From NCBI RefSeq assembly GCF_000026365.1, contig NC_012991.1:744001-808000 (forward strand): a stretch of DNA of 64,000 bases, in the 5' to 3' direction. Shown here one piece after another: positions 25,104 to 50,227 of the stretch. The notes beneath the pieces were generated by a model. The model saw nothing but the letters and a program-made list of their open reading frames with translations, searched no databases and had not been told where the DNA came from. The translations under genes were made by a program, and so were the position numbers. Each line of letters starts with the position of its first letter. Position 1 is the first letter of the stretch. This DNA is from Zygosaccharomyces rouxii. Its lineage: Eukaryota; Ascomycota; Saccharomycetes; Saccharomycetales; Saccharomycetaceae.

Positions 25104-27425
<2,322 letters not shown>

Positions 27426-28358: not shown

Positions 28359-30117
28359 CTAGCAAAAAATTTTAAATGTTCTGTACCACCATGGTTTCAT
28401 TCTGAATGCTTCTTTTTCATCTGCTATTTCTTGTTTTAACAGTTCTAAATCCACTTCTCTACGACCGGTGTCTATATCCATATCCTCTGGCTTGATGAAG
28501 ATCTTCCAATTTCTTTTCCAAATCTTGTGACCCAAGTACATGGATAGTATAATGGGGAAAGATAAGTAAGATTCAAAGAAAGATTCTGCACTTGGTGGAG
28601 ATCCAATGGGAAAAAGTGCTACGTAGAACTCCGAGATTAATTCAATAACACAGATGAAAAACCCCCACATGGAACCGTAGACACCAAGTGGCGATTTGAA
28701 TGACAGTTCATCAGTCGATCTCCCCTGAGCAGATAAAGCTCTGCGAAATCTGATGTGACATAGACAAATACCAGCCCAAGTGAACAATGCAGCTAATCCT
28801 GATAGTGCCAATAACCAATTAAAGACATCACCTTCTTTATCAGATTCTGCAATAAATGCAATTAGAGCAAATATTGAACAGAAGATAATACTAACCAATG
28901 GTCTGCCCATACGATCAATATATGCGAAACATTTTGGCAAGAAACCTTGGTCTGCTAAAGCTGATAATGATCTTGAAGCTGCATAAATATCTGAATTACC
29001 CACTGACAAAACTGCAATCAATATCACTACATTTATCACTGTAGGCAATCCACTAATTCCTTGATTTTTAATGGCAATGACGAATGGTGAAGCCGCAGCA
29101 TCCACAGATGAACTACCAATGAGCCTTTTATCACTGTAAGGAACCAATAGACCCACGAGGAAAAGGCAAATCACGTAAAAAAGTGTAATTCTCCAAAACA
29201 CTAGCGGCAGCAGGGACATCCTTTCTGGGATTGGCCGCTTCTGCACTTGCCATGCCAACCATTTCACTCCCAGAATAAGAGAATGCGGCTGTACTGAAAA
29301 CTGAACAGAAACCCTTAAATTTCTCACCTGAAGTTTCACCAACAAATGCACCTGGGTGATGCCAATATTTGGCACCAATATATCCAGTATGTGGACCACC
29401 ACCGCAGATAAGAACGACAGCTAAAATTATGAAACCAAGGATCATTATAATTTTGCAAAGACAAAATATAAATTCAGCTTCACCATACCCTTTTGCACCA
29501 AATAGATTAATAACGACGATGACTACCCAAAACAATGCAACAAACCCATCTCTGTATTTTTTATCTGTATGCCAATAATTAACCGTAATGGATGCAGAGA
29601 CAATTTCTAATGGTAAAGTACATAGAGTTGAAAGCATATAGTTGAAATTATTAGCAAATCCAAACGATTCATCAACAAATCTTGTAGCGTATGTGGTAAA
29701 CCCACCTGATACAGGGAATGCAACCGCTAATTCAGCTACTGACATAACCACACAATAAATCATAGTACCTGAAATTATCCAACCCAATAGAACACCAGCA
29801 GGACCAGCAGTTCTCAACGCAGTACCACTTCCAACAAAGAGACCTGTACCAATGGCACCACCAATGGCAATCATTTGTAAATGACGATTTTTTAGAGTAT
29901 GCTTCAATGGTGAGCGTGCAGTTGCAATGGCAATTTTCTCTGCTGATGTCAAATTTGGATCTAGTTCTGATAATTCCTGTCTTTTGAATGAATCCTTTAT
30001 CCTCTGCCAACGTGAACGTGAACGTTCATCAATACTATTAGAATCCACATGGTCAATAATCTCTACCTGACCAATTTCTTTGTCTTGAACTTCAGTTCTA
30101 TCCTTCTCTAAACTCAT
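28359..30117 (-). pseudogene. GAP1: GAP1-like general amino-acid permease broken by a frameshift
   Basis: The first frame (30117 to 29131) encodes the N-terminus and about half of an amino-acid/polyamine/choline permease: SPLKHTLKNRHLQMIAIGGAI, GTGLFVGSGTALR, GGFTTYATRFVDESFG, GFVALFWVVIVVIN and KFKGFCSVF. After DVPAA the protein similarity jumps to another frame, near 29202, and continues as VFWRITLFYVICLF... to the normal end (GDVFNWLLALSGL, ELSFKSPLGVYGS, MDIDTGRREVDLELLKQEI, WYRTFKIFC). The second frame has no own start. In GAP1 relatives a Lys-Gln pair sits at this point, so about five bases seem lost. The unshifted product would be about 328 aa, followed by unrelated residues and a stop. 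Apart from this break both halves look intact, so the event is recent or is an assembly error. GATA-type sites lie upstream. Confidence 0.85.
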
Positions 30118-41968: not shown

Positions 41969-44437
41969 ATGAAGCTCTTGTGTTATGTTCAGATCTTTTT
42001 ATCATGGTTTGGATTGGTGTTGACAGCAAGCAGCAACAGTAATGTTGGAATCCAAGATAATTTTCCCTTCACCTCTGTCGTTGACATTTTATCTCAGAAT
42101 GTTGAGTTTTCTACATTTCTAAGAGCTGTGCAGAGGAATGGATTTATCCCGTATTTGAATGAATTACAAAATTATACATTGATGGCCCCTGTAAATTCTG
42201 CATTCATTGATAATGAGCCAGAAGATAAGAATTATAAGTTTGACATTGAAAATTATTTGATCCATGATTCTGTTCTATTAACTTCTGGAATTGATCAAGG
42301 AATTTCTGTCATATCTGAGGGAGTGAAATTTCCCTATGTTTTAGAAAAGTTAAGCGATGATACAATTATTGTTAACGACGTTAAATTGGTAGATTCTGAC
42401 TTGCTACCGAATTTCCAAAATGCTAGTGTACACGGTATCGGGGAAAAAATCAATACGCCTTTTGGATTAAGGAACTTTTTACAAAAGATTGAGCATGATT
42501 TTAACGACTTCCATTTGTTTAATAATTTTACTCGAAATATACCTGCAGTTGAATCAATAACGACCAACCGTACAATATTGATACCTTCAGATTACAATTG
42601 GCATAATTTTTTTTCAGAAGTTGAAATAAATTATATCACAGATGCTTTCAATAGTCTGCAGAGAATGGAAGGAGACACTAGATATATTTGGAATACCGAT
42701 AGACAAAATTTTATTCAAAATATTATAATTGATAAAATCTTGGGTGGCATGGTACCCGATGTACATTATCCGGAAAATCTGAATGGCGATCCGCTTGATT
42801 TTCAAAGTGAAAGAAATGGATCCGTCTTGCTTGTTAATGGCTCAAAATCTTCAGATCTTTCAAATATGGCTTTTAACAGGGGGCTAGTTCATTCCTTTGA
42901 TAATTTAGAGATCATTAAAGATATTATCAGTTTTACTGCTGAGAAATATTTGCATGGGATTAATTGCTCAGATTTTGTCAGAGAACTATATTTTCGTAAT
43001 TTACAGTGCTTGATTAGGGATTCAAGAGAAACTCAAGGTGAGGAAAAAACTATTTTTGTTCCAGATGTTCCTTCGGCTGCTTATGATGGATTCAGTAGAC
43101 CTGGGCTACTGTACCATTTCGTCGGTAGCAAGATCTGGTTGGATCAAGAGTTTTCAGAAGAGAATCTTGGGAAAAGTAGGATGTTTGAGTCCAAGTTTTG
43201 TGATTCTGATGAAAATTTAGGTGGTAATTGTCAGAGGATTAAGATAATTAAAGATCGCGGTGAATACTTCATAAATGAAAAATATAGGGTAATTCATGAG
43301 GAGCCTTTTCAAATTGGAAATACTCTCATTTATTTGGTATCGGACAAAATGAAATTACCAGGAGATTTAACGCCTTCGATAAATCCATTTTACGGATGTT
43401 CCAGGTCATTGATGTTCCTAAGCCAGTTAAATATTCTCGATTTACCTTTGAACAAGGAAGGGTATACTATTCTTATGCCTTGCTTCGATTCGTGGGAATT
43501 TTTGGAGCTGAATCTGCAATTTCTTGAAAACAATATGACTGCCATCAATTCCATAATGAAGAACTTGATTATTGATGGACTTATCTATTCTGATTCAAAG
43601 GATACCACTTTTGAGACGAAAAATTTGCTGGGTGATTCTATATTGGTACAAGCAGAACGCCTGCATAATGGTGAAGGTACGGAGTTGAATCTAAATTTGA
43701 GCAGTGTGGGAACAAAAATAAAAATAAAAAATGACTTAGATTTATTCTTCAGTCAAGGCGTGGTACATCCTTTAGGGCAATTATACCTTCCAAAATCGGT
43801 TACTGTGACGTTGATAGATCTCATCCGTACTACAGGCACTACCCAACTCATTGAGCTTTTCGAGAAATTTGATGACCTTTCCTCAATTATACACGGGAAT
43901 AAACCCTATTCCCTGTTGGTTCCAACGGAGTCATCTCTGTCACTTGTCGGTGATATTCTTAATTCCACTAAACTTCTCAATTTGTTGAAATTGCATGTTA
44001 TAGAAGGAGATTTTACGTCAAGCCTCTTACACTGTGAAGGCAATGTTACTACTTTACTGGGCGATTCGCTGTTCTGCAGGAAAGATTCTCAGGAAAACTA
44101 TTTCTTAGGTGTCCTCAATGGTGCTCAGAGAGAAGTAAGAATCATGAAAAAAGGGTGTTCTTCTCATAATTCCTGTGTCTTTTTGATTGATCGACCAATT
44201 TCCTTACAGTGGTTAAATCGGAGGAAAATTTGGTTTGGGTTACCAAGAAGCCCGTTGGGCATTGCAATGCTCACTGAAACAGTCATATTGTTCATCGGTC
44301 TCTCTCTTTTTTTCTTTAAAAGGAAGAAGGTACCGGGCACTAACTTAGTGTCACCTAATAACGATGATGCAGAAATCACACGTCCCCTTATCGCTCCTGG
44401 CGAAAACACGAGTCCTGACGGTAGAAATGAAACTTAA
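41969..44437 (+). CDS. Fasciclin-domain membrane glycoprotein (YLR001C-like)
   Basis: 822 aa (S. cerevisiae YLR001C has 861). A signal peptide (about 1-20, MKLLCYVQIFLSWFGLVLT) is followed by a large luminal part with FAS1-like segments: VVDILSQNVEFSTFLRAVQRNGF with NYTLMAPVNSAF near residue 30-75, RTILIPSD, and YSLLVPTESSL near 650. Many N-x-S/T sites are present. A single membrane helix near 770 (IAMLTETVILFIGLSLFFF) and a short cytosolic tail with KRKK follow. FAS1 proteins are usually surface adhesion or matrix proteins; the yeast protein's role is not established. It is the last gene before the centromere, exactly as YLR001C borders CEN12. Confidence 0.9.
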   Translation: MKLLCYVQIFLSWFGLVLTASSNSNVGIQDNFPFTSVVDILSQNVEFSTFLRAVQRNGFIPYLNELQNYTLMAPVNSAFIDNEPEDKNYKFDIENYLIHDSVLLTSGIDQGISVISEGVKFPYVLEKLSDDTIIVNDVKLVDSDLLPNFQNASVHGIGEKINTPFGLRNFLQKIEHDFNDFHLFNNFTRNIPAVESITTNRTILIPSDYNWHNFFSEVEINYITDAFNSLQRMEGDTRYIWNTDRQNFIQNIIIDKILGGMVPDVHYPENLNGDPLDFQSERNGSVLLVNGSKSSDLSNMAFNRGLVHSFDNLEIIKDIISFTAEKYLHGINCSDFVRELYFRNLQCLIRDSRETQGEEKTIFVPDVPSAAYDGFSRPGLLYHFVGSKIWLDQEFSEENLGKSRMFESKFCDSDENLGGNCQRIKIIKDRGEYFINEKYRVIHEEPFQIGNTLIYLVSDKMKLPGDLTPSINPFYGCSRSLMFLSQLNILDLPLNKEGYTILMPCFDSWEFLELNLQFLENNMTAINSIMKNLIIDGLIYSDSKDTTFETKNLLGDSILVQAERLHNGEGTELNLNLSSVGTKIKIKNDLDLFFSQGVVHPLGQLYLPKSVTVTLIDLIRTTGTTQLIELFEKFDDLSSIIHGNKPYSLLVPTESSLSLVGDILNSTKLLNLLKLHVIEGDFTSSLLHCEGNVTTLLGDSLFCRKDSQENYFLGVLNGAQREVRIMKKGCSSHNSCVFLIDRPISLQWLNRRKIWFGLPRSPLGIAMLTETVILFIGLSLFFFKRKKVPGTNLVSPNNDDAEITRPLIAPGENTSPDGRNET

Positions 44438-45249
44438 GGAGGTATTCTTGGAAGGAGAGGATATCTTTATACATGAGGTATTCAATCTTTTTCATAGCTA
44501 ACTCGGAGAAAATATTTTTGATTTAAATAATGTCTTTCAAATTGGTTAAAGTAGAACAAAACGTAAATGTTTAATATGATGGAATATGGATATTATGACA
44601 AATTGTTTCAAAAGATACTGGTCACAGATGGCCACTTAATATACTTTAATCAAAGACAAAGTATGATCTAAAGTAGAGTAGATGTAAAAACCGCAATCCA
44701 TTAAAGAGCTTTAGAAGCTGTGTAATTTAATCACATGATATAATAATATATATTATAAGACAGTATATAATTTTATTTAATACTTTCAAAATTAATACAA
44801 ATAAAGCTTTAATTCTATTTTTTGATAATTATCTGTTTTAAAAGCGTTTAAAAAATATTCATTATTTTTGTTGTGGCTTACTTCCGAAACCTCTAATTTG
44901 TTTGATATGTGAGAAACTTTTTCGGAACAAGATTACTGAAGCCTACTTTGAACAAGTTTTTACGTACCTACAAACTAAACTGTTTCGTCTTATCTTCTAG
45001 TATTAATAACGACAGGAAGGTTGGTTCACAAGGAAAAATCTCAGACTAACTACTGAAAAAAATTGCCTAGACAATTTTCGCAATTACAGTTTCTCGCCAT
45101 AAAGAAGATGAACGACTTTATATCGTAAGCTGGTAATAAACAAATGCCTTAAAGCAATTGAACAATATAGGAAGCCATTACTGCAGAATTACACAATACT
45201 TCACTTAAATACAAAGAACCCGAACATACTAAGATTCTTTCCGTAGTAT
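44438..45249. other. Gene-free centromeric interval
   Basis: 812 bp without a supported ORF between the YLR001C-like gene and DNM1. These two flank CEN12 in S. cerevisiae, and AVT1 and PRE3 nearby flank CEN10. The interval contains the centromere DNA elements described separately. Confidence 0.85.
44730..44897 (+). other. CEN: Point centromere: CDEI-CDEII-CDEIII
   Basis: CDEI: ATCACATG at 44730-44737 matches RTCACRTG, the Cbf1 site. CDEII: 44738-44871, 134 bp with 17 G/C, i.e. about 87% A+T, in A and T runs. CDEIII: TGTGGCTTACTTCCGAAA at 44872-44889. It retains TGT at the left and the invariant TTCCGAAA around the essential CCG bound by the CBF3 subunit Cep3; the spacing from TGT to CCG is 12 bases, as in S. 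cerevisiae. The middle of CDEIII (GGCTTAC) departs from the S. cerevisiae TTTTGNT. Gene context is that of CEN10/CEN12. S. cerevisiae CDEII is about 78-86 bp and Kluyveromyces lactis about 160 bp, so this one is intermediate. Confidence 0.93.
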
Positions 45250-47592
45250 TTACAAGGTACCACTAATAATATTCGATGCCTTCTTATAAGTGGCCAATAC
45301 TTGAATGCATTTATCTCTTTCCTGTGCCAAAGTCTGGTCCTCCATTAATAGTTCTTCAAACATGGATTCTTTGTACAACTTGGTAACCAGCCTATTTTGA
45401 ACAGTTTCTTTGGAAAAATTGACAAGCAAGCACATGACAGCCTTTGGAATCTGATCCTCGATCATTTGGCGGATAATATCGAAATAGGATACAATCAACC
45501 TCCTAATTAGCTCACATTCAAGTTCTTCCCTTTCTGTTAATTGCGGCTCTTTGTTTTCTTCACTATCATCCGAACTATCTTGTTCAGCACCGCTTCCATT
45601 GATTTGGAGGTTTTTCATATCAATTAATGTTTGGCCGTTCATATCATTTTGAGCGGAGTACTGCTGTCTACTATGGCCATGGGTACCTCCGTGATGTTGA
45701 TGATCTTGAGATGATTGTTCCTTACCGAAAAAATATTTCAAAAATGAATCCTTTGATTGTTTCATGTCTGCGTTATCACCATCCTCATCCGATTCACTCT
45801 CTGCAGTAGAATCAGATTCAACTCGAGGTGATTCGGGATTTGATTCGTGTATCCCTTCTGCATCTCTTTCTTTTCGAATCTCTCTTTGTAAAAACTCCTT
45901 CTTTTGTTGGAGTTTTTGTTTAGCAAGAAGCTCACCGTTTCTCTTGCGTGTTTCTACAATATCAGCCATTGCCTCTGTAGCACTGAGGAAATTAGGATGA
46001 TTGGTATTGATGTAGGATCTATGAATATCAATGAGGCTTTCCACATAAGACCTTGTGGGGCCCAAGCGTTCTCTCAATAGTTCGCTAACTACTTCGATTA
46101 ACATGCTATGCAATTTTGGGTATCTGGCTAACTCATTGGTACCACAATTATGACAGATCTTCATCAATTCCTCATACACGAGTTCCACACAACGTTGAGA
46201 TGGATCTAATAATAATTTAATCTGTGGTTTGACCAAAAGATCAAATGCAAGTTCAGGGACAAAAAGAGATGGTCTTGGCCCCGTAGAATTCCTAATGGCG
46301 GTTCTAATATCCATGATAGTCAAATTGGCAGTAGGGCTAATAGATCTAAGCGAATTGCCAAAAATGTTGTTGTAAATGTAATAGATACGTGCACCACCAC
46401 ATAGCTCCTTCGTACTAATAGCAGATGAAGTACCATCAATAGAAGAGATAAAATTTGTAGCAAATTTGTTCATTAATTGTAAAACAAGACCTGCCCTATT
46501 TTCACTAGTGATATCCCCAGTATCACCTAGAGAAGCCAATTCCTGCTCTGATTGGCCAATCAGAGTGTTCAATCTTGCCTTAATATCTGGTAATTTATCT
46601 CTAATGTGAGACATCAAAATTTGGTTTAACAGTTTAGCCAAATACCGAGTACCACATCTGCTAGAAATAGTTCTGTAAACGGGATGTCTATTAAAATATT
46701 CTTGTTCATTATCTAGGGCTTCCTCTACAGTCTTATTCAATTGAATATCTTGTTGAGAACGGTTAACCACACCGACAAACCCTAGTCTTAAAGGATATAA
46801 CTTACCTGATAAAATGTCAAGAGCATTGGTTCCAGAATCCATTAAATCTAGTTTAGTAATAACACCTATGGTCCTCTTACCATGAGGATCAACTTCTCTA
46901 GCTAATTTCAAAGACTCAGAGTTTACCAAATCGACATTTGCAGGCGATACCGCTAAAATGATACAACTAGGAGTAGCAATATATTCCAAAAGTAAATTTT
47001 TAATCTGCTTTTCAATATCATGAGGTTGTTCACCAATCGGGACCTTAGTGATACCTGGTAAATCCACTAAAGTCAAATTTAATACACGGGGTGAAAAAAT
47101 CTTTAAATTTATAGGCACTTTACTGATACCTTTATCTTTACCGGCAATTCTTGCAGTTTCATTAGCAATCTCTTGTCTAATTTGTTTGAAATCGTAAAAA
47201 CGACGACCTGGTAAATGTAAGAATTCCCCCCATTCTTCATGCGTGGGCGGTTGGTAATTCTTGTTATTCTTTCTCAGATGATCTTCTAAAGTCATTTCAT
47301 GTTCACCATTCTCTTGTACATCCTCTGCGGTCTGACTTCCCTGATATTCATGGATCAATGGTGAATCTGGAGAAATGTTATTCAATTGCAAAACCAATGG
47401 TCTTCTAGTAACAATACCCGTACCTCTTGGTAAAAAATCTTTACCGACAAGTGTCTCTAGAATTGATGATTTACCGGATGATTGAGAACCTACGACGGCT
47501 AGGATAGGGAGATCTAATGTATCAATCCCAGCATCGTACATAACATCCTGAAGTTTGTTGACTGTGGGGATCAAATCTTCTAGACTGGCCAT
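45250..47592 (-). CDS. DNM1: Dynamin-related GTPase for mitochondrial and peroxisomal fission
   Basis: 780 aa (S. cerevisiae 757). The GTPase domain (about 1-330) has the P-loop GSQSSGKSSILE near residue 34, the switch-I T in GTGIVTRRP, DLPGITKVP near 182, and TKLD near 250. The middle/stalk region follows, with an acidic and Ser/His-rich insert B (about 590-680), then the C-terminal GTPase effector domain (LECELIRRLIVSYFDIIRQM to the end). Dnm1 forms rings on mitochondria with Fis1 and Mdv1. It corresponds to YLL001W, the first left-arm gene of chromosome XII, next to the centromere. Confidence 0.97.
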   Translation of the reverse strand: MASLEDLIPTVNKLQDVMYDAGIDTLDLPILAVVGSQSSGKSSILETLVGKDFLPRGTGIVTRRPLVLQLNNISPDSPLIHEYQGSQTAEDVQENGEHEMTLEDHLRKNNKNYQPPTHEEWGEFLHLPGRRFYDFKQIRQEIANETARIAGKDKGISKVPINLKIFSPRVLNLTLVDLPGITKVPIGEQPHDIEKQIKNLLLEYIATPSCIILAVSPANVDLVNSESLKLAREVDPHGKRTIGVITKLDLMDSGTNALDILSGKLYPLRLGFVGVVNRSQQDIQLNKTVEEALDNEQEYFNRHPVYRTISSRCGTRYLAKLLNQILMSHIRDKLPDIKARLNTLIGQSEQELASLGDTGDITSENRAGLVLQLMNKFATNFISSIDGTSSAISTKELCGGARIYYIYNNIFGNSLRSISPTANLTIMDIRTAIRNSTGPRPSLFVPELAFDLLVKPQIKLLLDPSQRCVELVYEELMKICHNCGTNELARYPKLHSMLIEVVSELLRERLGPTRSYVESLIDIHRSYINTNHPNFLSATEAMADIVETRKRNGELLAKQKLQQKKEFLQREIRKERDAEGIHESNPESPRVESDSTAESESDEDGDNADMKQSKDSFLKYFFGKEQSSQDHQHHGGTHGHSRQQYSAQNDMNGQTLIDMKNLQINGSGAEQDSSDDSEENKEPQLTEREELECELIRRLIVSYFDIIRQMIEDQIPKAVMCLLVNFSKETVQNRLVTKLYKESMFEELLMEDQTLAQERDKCIQVLATYKKASNIISGTL

Positions 47593-47898: not shown

Positions 47899-49221
47899 TT
47901 ATTTCTTGGGTTTCTTTCTTGTTTGTAAAGTTGTAATTACGTTGACTCTTTTGAGGTTTGACGTCTGTGTCTGTGATGGATCCGTGCTTGTTGAATTCGG
48001 CTCCTTAGCGCCCAGGATTGAAAATACTGGACGGTTCAATCTTATTTTGAAGAAATCTCTGATGTTAGCAAAAGCCTCGAGAGCACCTTCTTCCGTATCG
48101 TACTCCTCTCCTGTAATGTAACTTTTGATATAAGCAAACTGTTTCTTGGAATCTGCAACGTAGATCTCTTCTTGATTTTGATACAAGGGTGAAGTAGGCC
48201 AATGTGAAGATGCTTGTAATAGCGTACCTTGAACACCTATGACTGAGGCAATAACACTGAGGCGGAATTCTTGTCTTTGTGCCAATTCTGTCCAGAAAGT
48301 CGCAAGGTTGGTAGTGTGGATTCTACCCTCTTCAACCAATTGACGTAAGAATCGAGTCTTAGGATCATCTGGAAACAATGGTACCGTAAAAGCCGCCAAT
48401 TCTCCCACATGACGACCAAATATATCACCAACTTGCCAACCGGCGAACCGAACGGTCTTCAAGTGACGGTTCACTTGTGCTGAATCTTCTCCGGGGATTT
48501 GCAATCTGGCCTGAGCAGTTACCTGGAAATCTTGGCAAAGAATATCATCTAAAATGGAAAGCCACCATTGAAGCAATTGAGACCCATCCAAGCAGTGCTT
48601 TTGTTTATTCCGTGACGATTCTGCAAATAAGTATTGAGGTTCAGGTCTAGTGAAAAGACTTATCTTCGTAATGTAATTTGGAGGAAACCTTAAATTCAGA
48701 TAAAAATCGTTTGGTATACTTGGTGGATCTAAGGATGAGAGATGTCTTTTCGATAGAATACGTAACGATTTAATGACTTCTGTACGTTGAGTAAGAAGAT
48801 CCGCTTCTTGGTCATACTTCCTTTCTCGAGGCTTCACCTTTTGTAAGTAATAATTCGGATCAATGCTTAAAATGTATTTGATCAAGTTCTTGGTTAAACT
48901 CTTAAAACTGATTTTAGTATTACAGTACCCATTGGTATCTGCCTTAGATACAAATATCAACCTCTCAGCGGGAGCGTCTTTGTTATGCAATGTAAGAAAC
49001 ACATAGATTTCTAGTGCAAAAATGACTTTCTCTTGGTGGAATAGGGAGAAAAAGTGTTGAACTTTTACTGTTAAAGGTGTACTTTCTGATTTTGGAACGG
49101 GTGTCACTATTGAATGTGTCTGGGTAGGTAAACTTTGCAATTGAAGTACTTGGAATTCCTCATCTTTTGGTAAACAAGATTCTAACAATCGAGCTAAAAC
49201 TTGAGATTGGTTATGATTCAT
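47899..49221 (-). CDS. RTT109: Histone H3 lysine acetyltransferase Rtt109
   Basis: 440 aa (S. cerevisiae 436). The fold is that of fungal Rtt109/p300-type acetyltransferases, with FSLFHQEKVIFALEIYVFLTL, VSKADTNGYC (acetyl-CoA region near 90), SRNKQKHCLDGSQLLQWW near 208 and VRFAGWQVGDIFGRH near 260. The last includes the autoacetylated-lysine and catalytic loop neighbourhood. A Lys-rich tail (LQTRKKPKK) ends it. With Asf1 or Vps75 it acetylates H3K56 and H3K9/K27 on new histones during S phase. It corresponds to YLL002W. Confidence 0.95.
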   Translation of the reverse strand: MNHNQSQVLARLLESCLPKDEEFQVLQLQSLPTQTHSIVTPVPKSESTPLTVKVQHFFSLFHQEKVIFALEIYVFLTLHNKDAPAERLIFVSKADTNGYCNTKISFKSLTKNLIKYILSIDPNYYLQKVKPRERKYDQEADLLTQRTEVIKSLRILSKRHLSSLDPPSIPNDFYLNLRFPPNYITKISLFTRPEPQYLFAESSRNKQKHCLDGSQLLQWWLSILDDILCQDFQVTAQARLQIPGEDSAQVNRHLKTVRFAGWQVGDIFGRHVGELAAFTVPLFPDDPKTRFLRQLVEEGRIHTTNLATFWTELAQRQEFRLSVIASVIGVQGTLLQASSHWPTSPLYQNQEEIYVADSKKQFAYIKSYITGEEYDTEEGALEAFANIRDFFKIRLNRPVFSILGAKEPNSTSTDPSQTQTSNLKRVNVITTLQTRKKPKK

Positions 49222-49496: not shown

Positions 49497-50227
49497 CTAC
49501 AAATTCTCAAATTCCTCTGGGTAGACTATCAAACGTTCAACGCCATTCTTCGTCAAAACAACCATTCTGATTACACCGCCAGAAGAACCATCCCATTTGA
49601 TGGCCTGAGAGAGCGAATGTTTGATGAAATCTACAGTTTCGTCCTTAGTCATACCATCTTTGTAGTTCTTATCACAGTACCCATATATGAAAGTGGAACC
49701 TGAACCTGCAATGGCATACTTCTGCTTATGAAGAGAACCACCGATTGGTATACTATAAACTTCTCCCTGATTCTTTTCGTCATAACCCGCCACGATAATA
49801 CCTGCGGTTAGAGCATCCTTGTTCTCATAACATAGTTGTTGAAAAATGGCAGCCGCAGTGCGCGTGGAAGGTTCACCATATTGTGCAGTATATAGATCCA
49901 AATAGTACTGTACGATGTCAGCTACCGCTTGTGTATCTGCTGCAGAACCGGACCTGCAGCACCAGACTTTATCGTGAACACGAGTCAATTTATCCGTAAC
50001 ACGGTTGGCAACATATGGTCCCATAGTAGTACGTGAATCAGCACCTAATATTACTCCATCCTTGAAAGAAACTGCCATACTGTTTTAAATGCATTGTTAG
50101 TATAAACGCCCCTTCAACAATTAACTTAGCTCTTGGTATATATAACAAAGCGCTTAACATACATTGACGTCCCCAGACTGACTTCACCCTTTTTAAGGTG
50201 ATTCACATCGACTTGAATCCCATTCAT
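49497..50227 (-). CDS. PRE3: 20S proteasome beta1 subunit, two exons
   Basis: Exon 1 is 50227-50163 (MNGIQVDVNHLKKGEVSLG TS...) and exon 2 is 50079-49497. Together they give 215 aa, the same length as in S. cerevisiae. The propeptide ends at Gly19, and Thr20 (in SLG|TSIMAV) becomes the N-terminal nucleophile of the caspase-like site. GVILGADSRTT (with the conserved Asp and Arg), the Lys in VTDKLTR, and SGSAADTQA and AGSGSTFIYGYCD follow. Without exon 1 the reading frame would begin at an internal methionine and lack the nucleophile, so the spliced model is required. It corresponds to YJL001W, the left-arm neighbour of CEN10, and has a PACE site upstream. Confidence 0.97.
50080..50162 (-). other. 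PRE3 intron (83 nt)
   Basis: GTATGT at 50162-50157, TACTAAC at 50102-50096 and an AACAG end at 50080. The reading phase is kept across the junction: codon AT|T, Ile22. S. cerevisiae PRE3 also has one intron near the 5' end. Confidence 0.95.

What the first reader, a model, noticed from the sequence alone, without database searches (positions are those of the whole stretch)
44730..44897. Point centromere with an intermediate-length CDEII and a divergent CDEIII core
A complete CDEI-CDEII-CDEIII array lies in a gene-free interval, and the flanking genes are those of S. cerevisiae CEN10 and CEN12. CDEII is 134 bp and about 87% A+T, between the lengths known for S. cerevisiae (78-86 bp) and K. lactis (about 160 bp). 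CDEIII keeps TGT and TTCCGAAA at the usual 12-base spacing, but its inner bases (GGCTTAC) are unlike the T-rich S. cerevisiae version. It gives a data point on how CBF3 specificity and CDEII length evolve together.
Basis: partly seen in the sequence, partly recalled or inferred. Interest (0 to 1): 0.75.

Follow-up and report, generated by a model that had tools for sequence, protein, structure and literature searches.

The report
Ordinary point centromere of a yeast
This is the normal short centromere of one yeast chromosome, built to the same plan as the centromeres found on the six other chromosomes of the same genome, and its odd-looking inner bases are simply the part that differs from chromosome to chromosome.

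Summary
Window 44730-44897 holds CDEI ATCACATG, a 134-bp CDEII (87.3% A+T) and a 26-bp CDEIII with TGT 12 bp before CCG. Such an array with at least 80% A+T appeared in 0 of 200 shuffles. The assembly has 7 contigs and 9,764,635 bases, which fits Zygosaccharomyces rouxii CBS 732.

A matching array was found on 7 of 7 contigs, the six others each beside a gene that by recall flanks a S. cerevisiae centromere. CDEII is 134 bp in six and 136 bp in one. The shared motif is (T/A)GT-N7-TTCCGAA. The seven inner bases differ on every chromosome, so GGCTTAC is local variation and not a species-wide change of CBF3 specificity. Cep3, an Ndc10-domain protein and Ctf13 are encoded.

Gordon 2011 cites a 2007 paper on Z. 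rouxii centromeres and gives sequences of each centromere in a table that I could not read. Verdict: a real point centromere, already known. Mildly interesting: the central G that crosslinks to Ctf13 in S. cerevisiae is missing on 3 of 7 chromosomes, this one included.

The parts
44730..44737 (+). CDEI, ATCACATG (Cbf1-type E-box)
   Evidence: Sequence; the same place in the six other arrays holds RTCA(C/G/T)RTG
44738..44871 (+). CDEII, 134 bp, 87.3% A+T
   Evidence: same length in 6 of 7 arrays, 136 bp in the seventh
44872..44897 (+). CDEIII, 26 bp, TGT-GGCTTAC-TTCCGAA-ACCTCTAAT; CCG at 44884-44886
   Evidence: pattern (T/A)GT-N7-TTCCGAA in 7 of 7 arrays
44921..44927 (-). Extra TTCCGAA on the minus strand, 23 bp after CDEIII; probably chance
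   Evidence: in 1 of 7 centromere flanks (200 bp each side)
41969..44437 (+). Fasciclin-domain protein (left neighbour; YLR001C-type by recall)
   Evidence: Pfam Fasciclin E 2e-23
45250..47592 (-). Dynamin, DNM1-type (right neighbour)
   Evidence: Pfam dynamin domains and GED; best PDB matches Dynamin-1-like protein; the name DNM1 is recalled
47899..49221 (-). RTT109 histone acetyltransferase
   Evidence: PDB RTT109 E 2.4e-127
49497..50078 (-). PRE3 proteasome subunit (193-aa ORF)
   Evidence: PDB PRE3 E about 1e-109

Best explanation
This is the functional point centromere of contig 2 of this assembly (inferred to be Zygosaccharomyces rouxii CBS 732). Cbf1 binds CDEI, a single Cse4 nucleosome sits on the A+T-rich CDEII, and CBF3 is fixed in register by one Cep3 zinc cluster on the CCG of CDEIII, with the TGT 12 bp upstream as a weaker second site and Ctf13 over the bases between. 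The seven bases between TGT and TTCCGAA are spacer in this species. Shown here: the anatomy, its repetition on all seven contigs with near-constant CDEII length, the neighbouring genes, and the presence of Cep3, Ndc10-domain and Ctf13 genes. Inferred from S. cerevisiae: all binding steps. A further inference: if CCG keeps its place on the nucleosome, a CDEII about 50 bp longer than in S. cerevisiae puts CDEI roughly five helical turns further out, on linker DNA or on a longer wrap.
For: Array and chance test. Arrays on 7 of 7 contigs, CDEII 134 x6 and 136 x1, 82.1-88.8% A+T. The six others lie beside genes that by recall flank S. cerevisiae centromeres: trehalase (C1), PHO80-type cyclin and RRP6 (C3), BTB-ankyrin, TRAP-alpha and RRM genes (C4), DOM34-type and septin genes with citrate synthase further out (C5), HAT1 (C6), 3-beta-HSD/ERG26-type (C7). 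The eighth ancestral place by recall, MET14-VPS1 on C2, has no such array, in line with the one centromere loss reported for Z. rouxii. CBF3: Cep3 E 4.1e-178 to its best PDB chain, zinc-cluster cysteines aligned; Ndc10 domain II E 3.6e-73 on C7, with two weaker pieces in a frame on C4; Ctf13 E 1.1e-94.
Against: The scan was not exhaustive for every CDEI variant, so 'one per contig' holds for the stretches examined; of the 37 hits, the loci of 33 were held and filtered. One weaker site on C4 (L009: 76.3% A+T, no TGT at -12) was set aside. The common expression was written after seeing the seven arrays. CDEIII position 8 lacks the G described as completely conserved in S. cerevisiae.
Confidence: 0.96

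Rival explanations
1. A dead or relic centromere: the array persists at the ancestral place, but the chromosome uses another centromere.
For: C2 also carries the MET14-VPS1 place, by recall another ancestral centromere place, so this contig may descend from a fusion.
Against: The MET14-VPS1 interval shows no 134-bp stretch above 75.4% A+T at 10-base steps, while this array keeps every element and the common CDEII length. The rest of C2 was not examined base by base.
Confidence: 0.02
2. The array marks a real change of CBF3 specificity in this lineage, read out by the GGCTTAC core.
For: The inner bases differ from the T-rich S. cerevisiae form (recalled); G at position 8 is missing in 3 of 7.
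Against: Inner bases differ on every one of 7 contigs and carry 0.03-0.55 bits per column against 1.18-1.68 for the invariant columns. Cep3's zinc cluster aligns closely to its PDB relative and the Ctf13 arginine at the place of Arg308 is kept.
Confidence: 0.04
3. Chance A+T-rich intergenic stretch with look-alike motifs.
For: Without the A+T condition, loose arrays occur about 0.1 times per shuffled window (20 in 200), and short CDE patterns alone are near their controls.
Against: 0 of 200 with the A+T condition; the same spacing on 7 of 7 contigs.
Confidence: 0.005

Closest known systems
Zygosaccharomyces rouxii centromeres (Pribylova et al. 2007, PMID 17487563, not held, seen only as an entry in a reference list; Gordon et al. 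2011, PMC3141009, passages seen, its Table S2 of centromere sequences not read)
   Same: Very probably the same objects: species of 7 chromosomes with one centromere lost, centromeres cloned in part and inferred by the genome project according to Gordon 2011
   Different: I could not compare letters or published CDEII lengths
Saccharomyces cerevisiae point centromeres
   Same: CDEI, A+T-rich CDEII, CDEIII with TGT 12 bp before CCG; CBF3 genes present
   Different: CDEII 134 bp against about 80-90 bp; inner CDEIII bases not T-rich; G at position 8 in 4 of 7 and not invariant; A at position 18 only in this centromere
Kluyveromyces lactis / Eremothecium centromeres
   Same: Same three-part plan
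   Different: Their CDEII is about 160-164 bp

Membership tests
Saccharomycetaceae point centromere (CDEI-CDEII-CDEIII) | CDEI E-box (RTCACRTG type) at the 5' end | tested here: met
   ATCACATG at 44730
Saccharomycetaceae point centromere (CDEI-CDEII-CDEIII) | CDEII A+T 76-98% and little length variation within a species (Gordon 2011) | tested here: met
   87.3% A+T; 134 bp in 6 of 7, 136 bp in 1 of 7
Saccharomycetaceae point centromere (CDEI-CDEII-CDEIII) | Invariant CCGAA in CDEIII (Gordon 2011), with TGT 12 bp upstream of CCG | tested here: met
   TGT at 44872, CCG at 44884; CCGAA in 7 of 7 arrays, TGT in 6 and AGT in 1
Saccharomycetaceae point centromere (CDEI-CDEII-CDEIII) | Conserved pericentromeric synteny | tested here: met
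   Genes; S. cerevisiae order recalled; one search names one ancestral centromere by synteny to S. cerevisiae chromosomes X and XII
Saccharomycetaceae point centromere (CDEI-CDEII-CDEIII) | CBF3 subunits encoded in the genome | tested here: met
   Cep3, Ndc10 domain II, Ctf13; Skp1 not searched
Saccharomycetaceae point centromere (CDEI-CDEII-CDEIII) | Cse4/CBF3 occupancy and plasmid stabilisation | not testable with these tools
   Needs ChIP or a plasmid-loss assay
S. cerevisiae CDEIII consensus in the narrow sense | Central G (position 8) between the half-sites, completely conserved in S. cerevisiae | tested here: not met
   T at position 8 here; G in 4 of 7 arrays

The most novel reading that the evidence does not exclude
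In this species the middle CBF3-DNA contact has loosened: the Ctf13 arginine modelled to face the central base pair in S. cerevisiae is kept, yet the central G is present on only 4 of 7 chromosomes (G at position 8 or 9 on 6 of 7). This centromere is the one that lacks G at both, and it alone carries a second, inverted TTCCGAA 23 bp downstream, which might act as a helper CBF3 or Ndc10 site.
Probability: 0.04. Interest if true: 0.4.

Novelty: already known. Interest (0 to 1): 0.15.

Why it matters
It shows that a CDEIII core that looks divergent in one centromere can be pure between-chromosome variation, so a claim about CBF3 specificity needs the whole set of a genome's centromeres. The seven-centromere set is also a clean case of the length rule: CDEII of 134 bp, about 50 bp (five helical turns) above S. 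cerevisiae, held to within 2 bp on seven chromosomes.

Tried and rejected
L001, L003, L004 (TGT-N7-TTCCGAAA hits): no A+T-rich CDEII beside them by eye; L003 looks like coding sequence. L009 on C4: 139 bp, 76.3% A+T, GCA and not TGT at -12; dropped. The CDEI expression used wrongly left out CACATG; searches used wider ones. Internal duplication of CDEII (the 84-bp module idea of Meraldi 2006): the best self-shift in this CDEII was reached by 8 of 300 shuffles, but by 31 to 297 of 300 in the other six, so no support overall. A CDE0-like flanking element (recalled from K. lactis): no 8-mer shared by 4 or more of the seven flanks of up to 300 bp, either side. CDEII letters are not alike between chromosomes (43-51% ungapped identity in the 15 pairs of equal length). 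No direct repeat in 44430-45250.

The paper that first described these centromeres is not held. Library searches for rouxii + centromere + CDEIII (5 papers), Zygosaccharomyces + CDEII (7 papers) and Z. rouxii + CEN (49 papers, 20 listed) were read as listings, with passages opened in three of these papers (PMC3141009, PMC5499181, PMC3276169); I met no printed length for Z. rouxii CDEII.

Full report
Observation. The window reads CDEI ATCACATG at 44730-44737, CDEII 44738-44871 (134 bp, 87.3% A+T) and CDEIII 44872-44897, TGTGGCTTACTTCCGAAACCTCTAAT, with CCG 12 bp after TGT. It lies between the stop codon of a fasciclin-domain gene (44437) and the end of a dynamin gene (45250); the interval holds no ORF of 100 aa or more, one of 34 codons, no tRNA and no Rfam family at gathering score. 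In 200 dinucleotide shuffles of the window no array with at least 80% A+T appeared, and 20 appeared in all if the A+T condition was dropped.

Where it is. The window is G000:C2:744001-808000 of an assembly of 7 contigs and 9,764,635 bases. A review table gives Zygosaccharomyces rouxii CBS 732 as 7 chromosomes and 9.8 Mb (passages seen); I infer that species, and the size agrees with my recall of that assembly. Neighbours are MPP10, an amino-acid transporter (AVT1-type by recall) and the fasciclin protein on the left, and dynamin (DNM1-type), RTT109, PRE3, SFI1, OST1, ORC3 and COX16 type genes on the right. By recalled S. cerevisiae order this is the interleaved gene set of CEN10 and CEN12; the Eremothecium paper names one ancestral centromere by synteny to S. 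cerevisiae chromosomes X and XII (passages seen).

The species test. Genome-wide searches for TCACRTG-gap-TTCCGAA (11 hits, backwards control 3) and TCACRTG-gap-CCGAA (37 hits, control 29) are loose by themselves. Of the 37 hits the loci of 33 were held; filtering all held loci for more than 75% A+T left four arrays on C2, C4, C5 and C7 and one weaker site on C4 that I dropped. The missing three were found through pericentromeric genes: C1 beside the trehalase gene, C6 between HAT1 and the next gene, C3 between a PHO80-type cyclin gene and RRP6. All seven passed one common expression, written after seeing them, with one hit each in the stretch searched. CDEII is 134 bp on C1, C2, C3, C4, C6 and C7 and 136 bp on C5; A+T 82.1-88.8%. 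The place between MET14 and VPS1 on C2, the eighth ancestral place by recall, has no such array, which agrees with the one centromere loss Gordon et al. report for Z. rouxii (passages seen).

What CDEIII looks like. Columns 2, 3 and 11-17 (GT and TTCCGAA) are the same in 7 of 7; column 1 is T in 6 and A in 1. The inner columns 4-10 carry 0.03-0.55 bits each. GGCTTAC is therefore not a species motif. Column 18, the last A of the finding's TTCCGAAA, is A only here and G or C in the six others. Column 8, the central G that S. cerevisiae keeps on all chromosomes and at which Ctf13 crosslinks (passages of PMC3141009 and PMC6077249), is G on 4 of 7; G at 8 or 9 is found on 6 of 7, and this centromere is the exception (columns, read by eye; post hoc, seven sequences only). 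It alone has a further TTCCGAA, inverted, within 200 bp; C6 has a shorter five-base match 111 bp upstream.

Proteins. The genome encodes Cep3 (E 4.1e-178 to its best PDB chain, with CGVCARRKVKCDRLIPCTNC aligned to CSVCTRRKVKCDRMIPCGNC), a strong Ndc10-domain match on C7 with two weaker pieces in a frame on C4, and Ctf13 (E 1.1e-94). Counting along the alignment by hand, the S. cerevisiae Ctf13 pair Arg307-Arg308 corresponds to Lys-Arg here, so Arg308 is kept; the third aligned chain (6p7v, K. lactis by recall) has Gln-Asn there. So the central protein contact is kept although the base is not fixed.

Mechanism. From S. cerevisiae work, one Cep3 zinc cluster reads CCG, the only triplet whose substitution is not supported, while changes at TGT cost far less, and the Cse4 nucleosome covers CDEII and CDEIII; all seen as passages. 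The anatomy here fits that scheme. The longer CDEII would move CDEI about five helical turns away, in line with the roughly 10-bp steps described in 2025 (passages of PMC12925627).

Known or new. Gordon et al. 2011 state that Z. rouxii centromeres had been cloned (their reference 58), that genome projects had inferred the others, that sequences of each extant centromere are in their Table S2 (not read), and that CDEII length varies twofold between species and little within one. That their length figure includes Z. rouxii is my inference from this text. The 2025 atlas of 138 Saccharomycetaceae gives about 50 to nearly 200 bp; its main text has 0 occurrences of rouxii or Zygosaccharomyces, so whether its figures show this species I did not see. 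I file the finding as already known.

Limits. No ChIP or plasmid data; species inferred; not every CDEI variant was scanned genome-wide; published Z. rouxii letters were not compared.

Noticed in passing
window 25104-27401 (-): A DBP2-type DEAD-box gene is split into a 426-aa ORF and a 107-aa ORF with GTATGT at 26137 and TACTAAC at 25479: it looks like a large intron near the 3' end, as recalled for S. cerevisiae DBP2.
   Followed up: partly
window 28359-30117 (-): An amino-acid permease gene is broken into two overlapping ORFs in different frames, the first matching profile positions 1-230 and the second 232-466: a pseudogene or a sequence error.
   Followed up: partly
L053:6702 (C6) and L055 minus strand from position 1187 (C3): CDEI of two of the seven centromeres reads GTCATGTG, that is the CACATG E-box in the opposite orientation.
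   Followed up: partly
L051:8429-9262 (C2, MET14-VPS1 interval): By recall an ancestral centromere place; no CDEII-like stretch there, on the same contig as the window's centromere: probably the centromere lost in this lineage.
   Followed up: partly
window 1515-27401 against 37421-57889: The left part carries DNA polymerase alpha, isopropylmalate synthase, synaptojanin-type, TFC7-type, RRM, cytochrome b5 and DBP2-type genes (by recall a block of S. cerevisiae chromosome XIV left arm), the right part the CEN10/CEN12 set, so a synteny break probably lies between them.
   Followed up: no
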